Virus record (IMG/VR): IMGVR_UViG_3300043137_000038 | Span: 1 to 23,223 of that record | Length of the DNA: 23,223 nt | Reading direction: 5' to 3' (one strand) | Source of the DNA: a virus | Shown here: piece by piece, positions 19,184 to 23,223 of the stretch | How the letters are laid out: the number at the start of each line of letters is the position of its first letter | Numbering within the stretch: the first letter of the stretch is position 1 | Translations under genes and position numbers: made by a program | The notes under the pieces: generated by a model | The model's database searches: none | What the model was told of the DNA's origin: nothing | What the model saw: only the letters and a program-made list of their open reading frames with translations

Positions 19184-19597
19184 ATGGACGAAATTGGAAA
19201 ACATCTAGGCACTAAGCCAGTTATTGAATATGCAGAAATTGTTGGTGAAGAGACGCCTAGTAAAGTTGTTGTGAAAGCGGAAGATACCACGTCCGAGAGT
19301 GAGCGCGATTACAAATACGCAAGACAGAACTTCATTGACATTATCGAAAAGGGTGCAGACGCATTAGAAAATCTCATGGACGTTGCCCTACAGTCGCAAC
19401 ATCCTCGCGCATACGAGGTGCTTGCAACGACAATGAAAACTTTGATCGATGCGAACAAAGACCTTGTAGAATTGTCAAGAAAGAATAATCCAGAGCCTGA
19501 GCAAAAGCAGACCACTTCAGGCAAAGTTACAAATAATCTGTTTGTTGGATCAACACATGATCTGCAACAAATTTTGAGAGATATGAGAAATGAATAA
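19184..19597 (+). CDS. 16: Terminase small subunit gp16
   Basis: This 137-residue protein lies directly before the large terminase, as in T4 (gp16 164 residues). It is acidic and helix-rich, with YKYARQNFIDIIEKGADALE followed by NLMDVALQSQHPRAYEVLAT and MKTLIDANKDLVELSRK, consistent with the coiled oligomerising core of gp16. The C-terminus NNLFVGSTHDLQQILRDMRN is the characteristic tail in marine T4-like phages. Family role: it recognises DNA and stimulates the gp17 ATPase at the start of headful packaging. No clear ribosome binding site at good spacing is visible. The stop overlaps the gp17 start by eight bases, so gp17's N-terminal half is probably made by coupling. Confidence 0.85.
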   Translation: MDEIGKHLGTKPVIEYAEIVGEETPSKVVVKAEDTTSESERDYKYARQNFIDIIEKGADALENLMDVALQSQHPRAYEVLATTMKTLIDANKDLVELSRKNNPEPEQKQTTSGKVTNNLFVGSTHDLQQILRDMRNE

Positions 19598-20477
19598 TGG
19601 TTATCGTGGCAATAGAAATTTAAAATCTAAAGGCATACAACTTGAATGGAGTCAAGAGAGGGTTCAAGAGTATTTGAAATGCGCAAGGGATCCAATCTAT
19701 TTTGCTGAAAAATATATCCAGATTGTTCACGTTGACCGCGGTCTGATCCCTATTATTCTGTATGACTACCAAAAAGAAATCATGGAAGCAATCGCTTCGA
19801 ATCGCCGTGTGACTGTTAACACTTCAAGACAAGCGGGCAAGACAACGACTGCGGTTGCCGTAATTCTTCACTACATCCTATTCAATGATCACAAGACAGT
19901 TGCGCTTCTTGCGAACAAGGGTGACGCTGCAAGAGAAATCTTGGACCGTATTAAGATTGCATACGAATCACTTCCAGACTGGCTACAGCAAGGTGTTATT
20001 GAGTTCAACAAGGGTTCAGCCGAATTTGAAAACGGCAGTAAGATTATCGCGGCATCAACATCATCATCTTCTATCCGCGGTAAGTCCGTATCGTTTCTGT
20101 ATATTGACGAAACTGCATTCGTGGAACACTGGGATGACTTCTTCGCGTCTGTTTTGCCTACAATCATTTCTGGTAACACAACGAAGATGCTTTTCACATC
20201 TACACCAAACGGTCTGAATCACTTCTATAAGACTTGTGCTGGTGCTATGGAAGAGACAAACGGGTACATCTATATCGAAGTACCTTGGCAAAGAGTGCCT
20301 GGTCGTGATGATGCTTGGAGAGAAGAAACACTCAAGGCAATGAACTACGACTACCAAAAGTTTGCGCAAGAATTTGAATGTGTCACTGGCGACACATTGA
20401 TAACAGTAAGAGACAAAGAAACTGGTATAATTAAAAACATCAAAATTGGCGAGCTGTACGCAGAATTATATTCTTAG
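19590..20477 (+). CDS. 17: Terminase large subunit gp17, ATPase half fused to N-terminal intein piece
   Basis: Residues 1-263 are the ATPase domain of the packaging motor. The motifs are visible: adenine-side YDYQKEIM (58-65), Walker A TSRQAGKTT (78-86), Walker B VSFLYIDETAF (167-177, Asp173/Glu174) and the coupling motif FTSTPNG (202-208). At residue 264, in KFAQEFE|CVTGDTLITV, the sequence turns into intein block A, with Cys264 as the splice residue. The N-intein is 32 residues, ends in IGELYAELYS and stops (TAG 20475-20477). The nuclease half is encoded separately at 21208-22344. Joining the N-extein to the C-extein gives FAQEFE-CEFQGSS, a sequence fitting an uninterrupted gp17. So the stop is not a disabling mutation: splicing in trans should restore about 536 residues (T4 gp17 is 610). 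The start overlaps gp16. Confidence 0.9.
   Translation: MNNGYRGNRNLKSKGIQLEWSQERVQEYLKCARDPIYFAEKYIQIVHVDRGLIPIILYDYQKEIMEAIASNRRVTVNTSRQAGKTTTAVAVILHYILFNDHKTVALLANKGDAAREILDRIKIAYESLPDWLQQGVIEFNKGSAEFENGSKIIAASTSSSSIRGKSVSFLYIDETAFVEHWDDFFASVLPTIISGNTTKMLFTSTPNGLNHFYKTCAGAMEETNGYIYIEVPWQRVPGRDDAWREETLKAMNYDYQKFAQEFECVTGDTLITVRDKETGIIKNIKIGELYAELYS
20379..20474 (+). other. N-terminal intein fragment (32 residues, block A only)
   Basis: CVTGDTLITV is a typical intein block A with Cys1 as the nucleophile. The fragment then reads RDKETGIIKNIKIGELYAEL and ends at TAG. Normal split inteins have N-pieces of about 90-110 residues carrying blocks A and B; this one stops before block B. The arrangement matches the atypically split AceL-TerL intein (25-residue N-piece, CVYGDT start, as I remember it), also found in phage terminase. 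Confidence 0.85.
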
Positions 20478-20490
20478 AAATTCACATTTA

Positions 20491-20498
20491 TATAAATA
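20491..20498 (+). promoter_or_regulatory. T4-type late promoter before the endonuclease gene
   Basis: An exact TATAAATA lies in the 48-base gap between the terminase N-half stop (20477) and the endonuclease ATG (20526). It overlaps a 12-base palindrome ATTTATATAAAT (20486-20497). RNA would begin near 20503-20506 and cover the endonuclease and the terminase C-half. The element sits inside the insert, so it moves with it. Confidence 0.75.
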
Positions 20499-20525
20499 AC
20501 AGTGACATTAATAGGAGTCATATTC

Positions 20526-21218
20526 ATGAATAAAACGTATGTGTATAAAATAACAAGAAATGATGGTCTAGAATATGTTGGCATAACAATTAATCCCAAA
20601 GCAAGAAAAAAATCACATTTAAAGAGTATGAGATTTGCTATTGGCATCAAAGATTTTAAAATACTAAAAGAATGTGGTACTTATAAAGAAGCCGAGCGAT
20701 TAGAAGAAGTATATATCCAACAATTCGATACTTATGAAAATGGATTAAATCTCACTTTAACAGGCAAAGGTTTAAACGACATCGAAAAATTCAACACATA
20801 TGGTCACAAGTTTTCAGAGAAAAGTAAAAAGAAGATGTCGGAATCAGCAAAGAAAAGAGGACTGAATGTGCCGATTGGATTTAAGCATTCTGAAGACACC
20901 AAAAAACATTGGTCCAATATAAGAAAAAATAAAGTATATGGCCCTATTAAACTTACGCGCGAACAATGGTTAGAATTGTATACGGAGTTTAAAGAAGATA
21001 GGATTCAGTTTGAATCCGAATATATAGCAAGATTCGTCAAAAAGACGCAAAAATTAAATGTGTGTCACATAGCATTCTCAGAATTAAAAAGCGGCAACGG
21101 TAAACCGCTGACAAAAGAAACACTATACAGCAACTACTATGCTGAAAAATTTAATGTTACTCCACAAGCAATAAGAGTCATATTTAAAAATAAAGGGATT
21201 ATGGCAGATGCGATATGA
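20526..21218 (+). CDS. Free-standing GIY-YIG homing endonuclease
   Basis: The 230-residue protein has an N-terminal GIY-YIG domain (about 1-85): YVYKI (5-9) stands for GIY, YVG (17-19) for YIG, Arg27 and His31 follow, then a conserved Glu in RLEEVYIQQF (Glu60 or 61) and NGLNLT (72-77). Next come two lysine-rich NUMOD3-like helices (FSEKSKKKMSESAKKRG and HSEDTKKHWSNIRKN), typical DNA-binding repeats of phage homing endonucleases, and a C-terminal region with a possible helix-turn-helix (YYAEKFNVTPQAIRVIFKNK). The chosen ATG has TAGGAGT 7 bases upstream; the in-frame GTG at 20502 lies upstream of that site and is rejected. Location between intein halves points to cleavage of intein-free terminase genes, promoting inheritance of the insert. 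The last 11 bases overlap the terminase C-half start. The cut site is not determinable here. Confidence 0.85.
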   Translation: MNKTYVYKITRNDGLEYVGITINPKARKKSHLKSMRFAIGIKDFKILKECGTYKEAERLEEVYIQQFDTYENGLNLTLTGKGLNDIEKFNTYGHKFSEKSKKKMSESAKKRGLNVPIGFKHSEDTKKHWSNIRKNKVYGPIKLTREQWLELYTEFKEDRIQFESEYIARFVKKTQKLNVCHIAFSELKSGNGKPLTKETLYSNYYAEKFNVTPQAIRVIFKNKGIMADAI

Positions 21219-21522
21219 AGTATTAACTCCAACTGGTTGGTCGGAATTTGTTGGAATAAAAAAGAAACAATCTACTGGTCTAAGCCATATCATAACTGAA
21301 AGTGGTAGACAATTAGAATGTACATTAGATCACCAGATAAAAACTAACTACGGTTGGTTATGTGCCCAAGATATTTCTGTAGATGATATGATATTAACAG
21401 ACACGGGTGCTGAATTGGTGGTAGCAAATTATATACAAAAATCGTCTGTTAACGATGTGTTTGATCTGTTAGAAGTTAAAAAAGATCACCAATATTATAC
21501 GAACGGTATTATTAGCCACAAC
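21208..21522 (+). other. C-terminal intein fragment (105 residues, blocks B, F and G)
   Basis: Block B is LECTLDHQIKTNYGW, with the conserved Thr39 and His42. Block F is VFDLLEVKKDHQYYTNG. Block G is IISHN with penultimate His104 and terminal Asn105, followed by Cys106. All catalytic positions for splicing appear present. There is no endonuclease domain in the intein itself; with the 32-residue N-piece it makes a 137-residue mini-intein. Confidence 0.85.
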
Positions 21523-22344
21523 TGCGAGTTCCAAGGCTCATCTGGTACACTCATCAGCGGTAACGCCTTAAAAGCTCTTGCTCCAAAGCCCGCGATTACA
21601 GAGACAAACAACATTTCAATGTATAAAGCGCCTGTTCCAGGACACACTTATGTGTGTGTCGCTGATGTGTCAAGAGGCAAAGGCTTAGACTATTCCGCAT
21701 TTCAGATAATCGATGTTTCCGAAATGCCTTATGAACAAGTATGCGTGTTTCGAGACAACATGGTAACACCTGTTGACTATGCGGAAATCATATATAGAAC
21801 AACAAAAGGCTATAATGACGCATACACTTTGGTAGAGATTAACGACATTGGTGAACAAGTGTCAACAATTCTCAGTTATGACTTTGATGTTGAAACTCTC
21901 CTGTTTACAGAGTCCGCAGGCAGATCAGGCAAAAGAATTTCTGGTGGGTTCAGCAAAGGCGCTGACAAAGGAATAAGAACGACGAAATCAGTGAAAGCAA
22001 TTGGATGCAATATACTCAAACTGCTTGTTGAACAAAACCAATTGATTATCAATGACTTCCACACCATTAACGAACTATCGAAGTTTTCAAGAAAAGCCAA
22101 TTCGTATGAAGCGGAATCAGGATCACATGACGATTTGGTTATGTGTCTTGTGTTATTTGCTTGGCTATCAGATCAAATGTTCTTTAAAGAAATTACGGAC
22201 ATTAACACTATGTGGAAATTGAGAGAGAAAACAGAAGAACAAATCGATTCTGAAATGTTGCCATTTGGTTTCATGGATGATGGAACAGACTTAGAGACTC
22301 GACCCGTGATAGACTTAGTTGAAGACCGCTGGCTAAATTTCTAA
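21208..22344 (+). CDS. 17: Terminase large subunit gp17, C-terminal intein piece fused to nuclease half
   Basis: The 378-residue product begins with a 105-residue C-intein and continues as the C-terminal nuclease domain of gp17. After splicing at His104-Asn105/Cys106, the extein starts CEFQGSSGTLISGNALKAL. The RNase H-like nuclease residues are visible: Asp153 in YVCVADVSRGKG, Glu210 in LVEINDIG, and Asp308/309 in GSHDDLVMC, matching the three acidic residues of T4 gp17 (Asp401, Glu458, Asp542). FTESAGRSGKRISGGFSKGA and GIRTTKSVK lie between them. The domain cuts the DNA concatemer at the start and end of headful packaging. The ATG lies in the end of the endonuclease gene (11-base overlap), with AAGGG 10 bases upstream. 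Expression should therefore follow the endonuclease gene's promoter or read-through. Confidence 0.9.
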   Translation: MRYEVLTPTGWSEFVGIKKKQSTGLSHIITESGRQLECTLDHQIKTNYGWLCAQDISVDDMILTDTGAELVVANYIQKSSVNDVFDLLEVKKDHQYYTNGIISHNCEFQGSSGTLISGNALKALAPKPAITETNNISMYKAPVPGHTYVCVADVSRGKGLDYSAFQIIDVSEMPYEQVCVFRDNMVTPVDYAEIIYRTTKGYNDAYTLVEINDIGEQVSTILSYDFDVETLLFTESAGRSGKRISGGFSKGADKGIRTTKSVKAIGCNILKLLVEQNQLIINDFHTINELSKFSRKANSYEAESGSHDDLVMCLVLFAWLSDQMFFKEITDINTMWKLREKTEEQIDSEMLPFGFMDDGTDLETRPVIDLVEDRWLNF

Positions 22345-22359
22345 TTGATTTCGAAAAAA

Positions 22360-22367
22360 TATAAATA
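22360..22367 (+). promoter_or_regulatory. T4-type late promoter before the sheath gene
   Basis: An exact TATAAATA lies in the 77-base gap between the terminase C-half and gene 18, 54 bases before the ATG. T4 gene 18 is also a late gene needing high expression. A strong ribosome binding site (AAAGGAG, 22408-22414) follows. Confidence 0.8.
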
Positions 22368-22421
22368 ATGATATAGTTTATTAGAGTCATACACTATTCA
22401 CATATATAAAGGAGAAATGAA

Positions 22422-23223
22422 ATGGGATTTCAGGTAAGTCCAGGTATTAACATTAGCGAGATTGATCTTTCTACTGTTGTCCCTGCGGTAGCATCTACAG
22501 AAGGCGCTATCGCTGGCGTGTTTCGTTGGGGACCGCTAAATGAGAGAGTTCTGGTCACATCAGAGACAAATCTTGCAACGCGCTTTGGTAAGCCTTTCGC
22601 AAACAGCACATGGACAAACGCAGAAACATTCTTTACTGCGGCTGACTTTTTGGCATACGGCAACAAACTTTATGTGGCTCGTGTAGCATCAAATACCGCA
22701 TATAATGCCGGATCATCAAACGCGCAAATTTCTACTGCAACAGCCGCGCTTGCAAATTCATCATCAGCTTTCATAGCGAGATATCCAGGCGCACTTGGCA
22801 ACTCGTTGAAAATTTCTATCTGTGAAAACTCTTCAAACTTTTCTTCGGCCAACAACGGCATCACAGGTATTACCCTCGCTTTAGGTGCAAACACAGCCAC
22901 AGTTTCTGACTACGCATTGCTTACCGCTGGTGATATCCTAAGAGTTGGAAGTTCTGCTATCGGTTTTCAAGACCTAGTTGTTTCGATAACACCCTCAACT
23001 TCTACTGTCTCGTTCACAACAAAATACAAACTTTCCACTGCTTTGTCTTCTGCGACAGGAACAAGAAAATGGGGCAACTACAAAAATGTAAACGCCGCAC
23101 CTGTTGCAAACAATATCCACGTAGTTGTAATTGACGAAGATGGTGATGTGTCTGGCACTCCAGGTACCATTCTTGAAGTTTTTGAAAATGTTAGTATCGT
23201 ATCAACAGCAAAATCAGAATCTG
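22422..23223 (+). CDS. 18: Tail sheath protein gp18, 3' end cut by window
   Basis: The frame opens at an ATG 7 bases after AAAGGAG and stays open to the right edge (267 complete codons). The opening MGFQVSPGINISEIDLSTVV with PAVASTEGAIAGVFRWGP is a clear gp18 N-terminus of T4-like marine phages. TNAETFFTAADFLAYGNKLY with VARV and later YPGALGNSLKIS are further sheath hallmarks. Gp18 polymerises into the contractile sheath around the tube; contraction drives the tube through the cell envelope. T4 gp18 is 659 residues, so less than half is probably visible. It has its own late promoter and is the first gene of the tail sheath/tube group that in T4 continues with 19 and 20. Confidence 0.9.
   Translation, partial: MGFQVSPGINISEIDLSTVVPAVASTEGAIAGVFRWGPLNERVLVTSETNLATRFGKPFANSTWTNAETFFTAADFLAYGNKLYVARVASNTAYNAGSSNAQISTATAALANSSSAFIARYPGALGNSLKISICENSSNFSSANNGITGITLALGANTATVSDYALLTAGDILRVGSSAIGFQDLVVSITPSTSTVSFTTKYKLSTALSSATGTRKWGNYKNVNAAPVANNIHVVVIDEDGDVSGTPGTILEVFENVSIVSTAKSES

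What the first reader, a model, noticed from the sequence alone, without database searches (positions are those of the whole stretch)
19590..22344. Terminase gene 17 is split in two, with intein halves that should trans-splice
The ATPase half ends in intein block A (Cys264) and a stop. The nuclease half begins with intein blocks B, F and G ending His-Asn before Cys. All splice residues and both sets of terminase catalytic residues are present, and the joined exteins read FAQEFE-CEFQGSS without gap or duplication. The packaging motor would therefore depend on protein trans-splicing of two separately translated products. This 'fractured gene' type (split intein with an endonuclease gene between the halves) is known from environmental phage sequences, but this example appears complete and includes its promoters.
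Basis: partly seen in the sequence, partly recalled or inferred. Interest (0 to 1): 0.9.

Follow-up and report, generated by a model that had tools for sequence, protein, structure and literature searches.

The report
Phage DNA-packaging gene split by intein
This phage makes its DNA-packaging motor as two separate proteins that a split self-splicing element (an intein) should join after translation; the case is real and well built, but it belongs to an already characterised and, as shown here, very common family of terminase split inteins.

Summary
TerL (gp17) is in two genes: an ATPase half ending in a 32-residue intein N-fragment (Cys264 onward), and a nuclease half beginning with a 105-residue C-fragment (…SHN|CEF). 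A GIY-YIG homing endonuclease with a T4-type late promoter and Shine-Dalgarno site lies between. The joined 536-residue extein aligns without gap to 67 intact viral TerLs and to T4 gp17.

It is not a new kind. Both fragments match the PDB consensus intein Cat (6dsl), built from the experimentally splicing, naturally split AceL-TerL and GOS-TerL inteins, and Cat carries the same EFE|C flank. A scan with the Cat C-fragment returned at least 187 viral loci. Of 58 classifiable, 55 have the same layout (intein-N, stop, GIY-YIG gene, intein-C), 54 of them with the TATAAATA promoter. Three have lost the endonuclease but stay split. Cultured Serratia, Providencia, Yersinia, Vibrio and Campylobacter phages also carry split terL. 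Trans-splicing is the best explanation (about 0.9) but is not shown for this intein. Verdict: supported interpretation, new member of a known kind, moderate interest.

The parts
19184..19597 (+). terminase small subunit (gp16), overlapping the TerL N half
   Evidence: PHROG 445 at 1e-32, Pfam DNA_Packaging
19590..20477 (+). TerL N half: ATPase extein (263 aa) + intein-N (32 aa) + TAG stop
   Evidence: Terminase_6N 1.7e-24
20379..20474 (+). intein N-fragment, block A CVTGDTLITV, Cys1 = residue 264
   Evidence: CatN match with EFE flank, E 0.002
20491..20498 (+). TATAAATA, T4-type late promoter for the endonuclease and the TerL C half (inferred)
   Evidence: same motif in the same gap in L003, L004 and in 54 of 55 Cat-type loci
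20513..20517 (+). AGGAG Shine-Dalgarno, 8 bases before ATG 20526
   Evidence: sequence
20526..21218 (+). GIY-YIG homing endonuclease gene with NUMOD3-like motif, 230 aa
   Evidence: Pfam GIY-YIG 1e-7, PHROG 314 5.6e-17; 41-44% identical genes at the same place in L003, L004, L005
21208..22344 (+). TerL C half: intein-C (105 aa) + nuclease extein (273 aa); start codon overlaps the endonuclease 3' end by 11 bases
   Evidence: Terminase_6C 1.6e-10
21208..21522 (+). intein C-fragment, blocks B (TLDH), F and G (ISHN)
   Evidence: CatC 1.4e-12; intein_Cterm; invariant D41 H42 H104 N105 across 8 relatives
21523..22341 (+). C-extein, RNase H-like nuclease, starts with Cys+1 (CEFQGSSGTL)
   Evidence: T4 gp17 alignment, 67-relative junction audit
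22360..22367 (+). TATAAATA before the tail sheath gene gp18 (22422-)
   Evidence: Gp18 domain Pfam hit

Best explanation
The locus is a fractured T4-type large terminase gene carrying an atypically split class 1 intein of the AceL-TerL/GOS-TerL family at the EFE|CEF site, with a GIY-YIG homing endonuclease gene in the gap. The N half is translated from the gp16-gp17 message. The endonuclease and C half are probably transcribed late from TATAAATA 20491 and translated in a coupled way. The 32-residue and 105-residue fragments associate, Cys1 and Cys+1 carry out the acyl shifts, the last Asn cyclises, and a 536-residue TerL is released. The endonuclease spreads the insert by cutting intein-free terL alleles. 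Shown here: gene anatomy, homology, conserved splice residues, gapless extein, and purifying selection in the Cat-type branch. Inferred: actual splicing, promoter use, and homing.
For: Match of both fragments to Cat, with the same extein flank. AceL-TerL (25/104 aa), GOS-TerL (37/115) and Cat-TerL (30/104) splice in trans (PMC11766414); here 32/105 with Cys1/Cys+1. Gapless 536 aa extein with all catalytic motifs. Same layout in L003, L004, L005/L007 and in 55 of 58 Cat-type loci. In those loci none of the extracted segments has an internal stop, and pooled dN/dS is 0.08 (intein-C), 0.33 (intein-N, 29 codons), 0.14 (endonuclease), 0.10 and 0.12 (exteins). Complete Serratia 92A1, Providencia PSTRCR_127 and Vibrio K469 records contain one TerL N-half match each, so no intact spare copy was seen. 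Three alleles lost the endonuclease but keep both intein fragments. Foldseek hits of the intein-C model are nearly all intein/hedgehog (HINT) folds.
Against: Splicing of this particular intein is not demonstrated. The window is a 23 kb contig, so a second terL elsewhere in this phage cannot be excluded directly. The intein-C structure model is of limited confidence (pLDDT 68, best Foldseek E 1.3e-3). dN/dS was measured on the Cat-type branch, not on the window itself, and the intein-N estimate is weak because the fragment is short.
Confidence: 0.9

Rival explanations
1. The halves work as two separate polypeptides without being joined; the intein fragments only hold ATPase and nuclease together, as in the genes-in-pieces ribonucleotide reductase made by a homing endonuclease insertion.
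For: The split falls between two independently folding TerL domains, each solved alone for T4-type gp17 (2o0h, 3c6a). A functional genes-in-pieces reductase is cited in PMC3322345 (ref. Friedrich 2007).
Against: All residues for complete splicing are kept, intein-C is the most constrained segment (dN/dS 0.08), and family members splice in trans.
Confidence: 0.06
2. The gap is an RNA intron (group I/II) removed before translation.
For: Phage endonuclease genes often sit in group I introns, and terL of ICP1 is spliced at the RNA level (PMC10448857).
Against: No Rfam match at E up to 1 over 19500-22500; intein motifs flank the gap on both sides; the two halves have their own stop and start codons.
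Confidence: 0.01
3. A decayed or artefactual split: sequencing error or a pseudogene.
For: The endonuclease frame equals the N-half frame, separated by two stops (TAG 20475, TAA 20493).
Against: A second contig (L002) is identical in all five segments at the protein level, and independent relatives at 56-59% identity keep the same split layout and overlaps. No internal stops in the Cat-type segments extracted (46-58 sequences per segment).
Confidence: 0.02

Closest known systems
AceL-TerL, GOS-TerL and the consensus Cat(-TerL) split inteins
   Same: Same host protein, short IntN and about 105 aa IntC, C1/C+1 (as AceL and Cat), EFE|C and C-E flanks
   Different: Sequence is clearly divergent from Cat; IntN is 32 aa here; splicing of this one is untested
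Fractured genes with split inteins (Dassa et al. 2009, NAR 37:2560; not held, cited through other papers)
   Same: Essential phage gene broken by split intein halves with a free-standing endonuclease gene between them
   Different: From memory that work stresses a new endonuclease family; here the gene is GIY-YIG/NUMOD3
Split terL of cultured phages: Vibrio VP-1, K469, 1.244.A; Serratia 92A1; Providencia PSTRCR_127; Yersinia phiR1-RT
   Same: TerL in two ORFs with related intein fragments and an endonuclease
   Different: In the Vibrio phages the endonuclease is fused to intein-N in one frame; 92A1 and PSTRCR_127 carry a different, SegE-like endonuclease and sit one codon upstream; phiR1-RT is split at the Walker B site with a TnsA-like endonuclease
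Contiguous TerL inteins of Salmonella Marshall/Mooltan and Serratia Kevin
   Same: TerL inteins of T4-like phages
   Different: Contiguous rather than split; in Kevin the intein is at Walker A (the site in Marshall and Mooltan was not checked)

Membership tests
AceL/GOS-TerL atypically split inteins | Inserted in TerL at the EFE|C-E site | tested here: met
   CatN (6dsl_A) begins EFE and CatC ends with C-E; window reads EFE|C..HN|CE. AceL/GOS flanks themselves not read.
AceL/GOS-TerL atypically split inteins | Sequence homology over both fragments | tested here: met
   CatC 1.4e-12, CatN 0.002
AceL/GOS-TerL atypically split inteins | Short IntN (25-37 aa), long IntC (104-115 aa) | tested here: met
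   32 and 105 aa against values in PMC11766414
AceL/GOS-TerL atypically split inteins | Splices in trans | not testable with these tools
   Needs co-expression
Class 1 intein | Cys/Ser1, block B TxxH, penultimate His, terminal Asn, Cys/Ser/Thr+1 | tested here: met
   C1, TLDH, SHN|C
Fractured gene (split intein + free-standing endonuclease) | Two extein genes with intein halves and an endonuclease ORF between | tested here: met
GIY-YIG homing endonuclease | GIY-YIG domain above curated cut-off | tested here: met
   32.6 bits against a cut-off of 22.6
GIY-YIG homing endonuclease | Cuts the intein-free terL allele | not testable with these tools
   Needs a cleavage assay
T4 gp17-type TerL | ATPase and nuclease motifs, full-length alignment to gp17 | tested here: met
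   8.6e-107 over residues 4-493; motifs
Group I/II intron | Ribozyme structure in the gap | tested here: not met
   No Rfam match at E<=1

The most novel reading that the evidence does not exclude
The split is more than a by-product of homing: separate late expression of the C half makes active TerL available only after trans-splicing, so assembly of the packaging motor is timed by it. This would explain why the late promoter in the gap is conserved and why alleles that lost the endonuclease remain split.
Probability: 0.1. Interest if true: 0.6.

Novelty: new member of a known kind. Interest (0 to 1): 0.35.

Why it matters
It adds a divergent natural split intein with a complete genomic context to a family used in protein engineering. 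It also shows that this family is widespread in viral metagenome contigs, with intermediates (endonuclease fused to intein-N, separate endonuclease, endonuclease lost) that outline how genes become permanently split. An essential packaging motor that depends on trans-splicing in many phages, some culturable, makes the biology directly testable.

Tried and rejected
RNA intron: no Rfam match. Assembly artefact: rejected by L002 and independent relatives. Structure of the whole C half with four sequences gave a useless model (pLDDT 39); intein-C alone gave a partial model (pLDDT 68) with HINT hits. The endonuclease query found nothing in named phages even at E<=1, although profile comparison links it to the Vibrio fused endonucleases; low-complexity masking is the likely reason, since local BLAST with masking on weakened that match from 3e-10 to 2.7. 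The Dassa 2009 paper is not held, and no held paper was found with the AceL-TerL letters, so the comparison rests on the solved Cat sequence.

Full report
OBSERVATION. The window carries a T4-like structural block: neck/connector proteins, gp15 tail sheath stabiliser, gp16, gp17 and gp18 in order. Gp17 is in two ORFs. The first (19590-20477) is 263 residues of ATPase extein followed by 32 residues of intein and a TAG. The second (21208-22344) is 105 residues of intein followed by 273 residues of nuclease extein. Between them is a 230-residue GIY-YIG endonuclease, 20526-21218. Its start is preceded by AGGAG at 20513-20517 and by TATAAATA at 20491-20498. The second TerL ORF starts inside the endonuclease 3' end (11-base overlap), which suggests translational coupling (inference). 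The endonuclease is in the same frame as the N half, with TAG 20475 and TAA 20493 between.

EXTEIN INTEGRITY. The joined 536-residue protein aligns to T4 gp17 at 8.6e-107. Against 67 intact viral TerLs no alignment column falls between residues 263 and 264, and Walker A (SRQAGKTT), Walker B (FLYIDE), the C-motif (TSTPNG) and nuclease motifs (VADVSRGKGLD, VEINDIG, SHDDLVM) match. The insert is AT-rich (32% GC against 42% for the window and 40-42% for the exteins), in keeping with a mobile element.

WHAT THE INTEIN IS. The full intein hits PDB 6dsl_B, the consensus engineered intein CatC, at 1.4e-12. The N fragment with its flank hits 6dsl_A, CatN, at 0.002, and CatN begins with the same EFE extein. 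Cat was designed from GOS-TerL and AceL-TerL (PMC11766414). That review gives fragment sizes 25/104 (AceL, Cys1/Cys+1), 37/115 (GOS, Ser1/Cys+1) and 30/104 (Cat), all splicing in trans. The window (32/105, Cys1/Cys+1) fits.

HOW COMMON IT IS. A viral-contig scan with the window C half gave the same architecture in L002 (identical), L003, L004 and L005/L007 among many intact TerLs. A scan with the Cat C-fragment gave 187 relatives; of the 80 kept, 58 could be classified. Fifty-five have intein-N, stop, a GIY-YIG gene (189 residues in those printed) and intein-C, with a gap of about 608 bases; 54 of 55 have TATAAATA within the first 200 bases of the gap. These endonucleases are homologous to the window's by profile comparison. 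Three loci (L157, L179, L192) have lost the endonuclease but the two intein fragments are still separate ORFs. L157 and L192 are 99-100% identical on the intein-C side to loci that still have it, and L157 keeps a remnant of the endonuclease 3' end.

SELECTION. In the Cat-type set pooled dN/dS is 0.08 (intein-C), 0.14 (endonuclease), 0.10 and 0.12 (exteins) and 0.33 (intein-N, 29 codons only), with no internal stops. All parts are under purifying selection. This was not measured on the window itself, and synonymous distances in the exteins are near saturation.

NAMED PHAGES. Serratia 92A1 and Providencia PSTRCR_127 have N half, SegE-like endonuclease and C half as three ORFs, displaced one codon upstream (QEH|C). 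Vibrio VP-1, K469 and 1.244.A have intein-N fused in frame to a homologous GIY-YIG endonuclease, with the C half in an overlapping ORF. In the complete records of 92A1, PSTRCR_127 and K469 the TerL N half gave a single match, so no second terL was seen. This supports the split gene being the working terminase.

MECHANISM. Best reading: trans-splicing of two separately made halves, with the C half and endonuclease probably expressed from the late promoter in the gap. Splicing is inferred from family biochemistry and conserved residues. Homing is inferred from the endonuclease family and insert site. The rival of unspliced but functional halves remains possible at a few percent.

VERDICT. What lowers the score is that naturally split TerL inteins with this split position are already characterised, and this layout is common. 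Apparently unreported, as far as the partial paper library shows, are the abundance, the conserved late promoter in the gap, and the fused and endonuclease-less intermediates; none of these was checked against every existing paper.

Noticed in passing
GU296433.1 (Campylobacter phage NCTC12673) about 46039-46755 minus strand and 72885-74222 plus strand; L112, L095; also MT863715.1 (L092): TerL halves with intein-N (..FIDE|CVAGDTKITV..) and intein-C (..VSHN|CAF) lie about 26 kb apart on opposite strands, split at the Walker B site. The feature table skips gene numbers 55 and 82 exactly there.
   Followed up: partly
L093 (Campylobacter phage vB_CcoM-IBB_35) 2002-7278: TerL appears to hold three inteins: one contiguous at Walker A and two split ones whose middle extein would be only about 8 residues (CNIIVVDE). 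The original paper describes an intein plus an intron (PMC3322345). The last intein-C is interrupted by a frame change.
   Followed up: partly
L091 (Yersinia phage phiR1-RT) 2010-4859: TerL split at the Walker B site with a TnsA-like endonuclease between the halves.
   Followed up: partly
L157, L179, L192: Alleles that lost the endonuclease gene but remain split; L157 keeps a remnant of its 3' end.
   Followed up: yes
L005/L007 1169-5095; L084: Two TerL inteins in one gene: contiguous at Walker A plus split at the QEF/EFE site.
   Followed up: no
L083, L085, L005: The split intein sits one codon upstream of the EFE|C site used by the window, L003, L004, the Vibrio phages and Cat.
   Followed up: no
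L086 (Nitratidesulfovibrio phage SRB7757) 2694-4829: Contiguous mini-intein of the same family at the Walker B site of TerL.
   Followed up: no
window 2853, 8114, 22360: Further TATAAATA motifs, all on the + strand, in or near intergenic gaps before large ORFs; probable late promoters.
   Followed up: no
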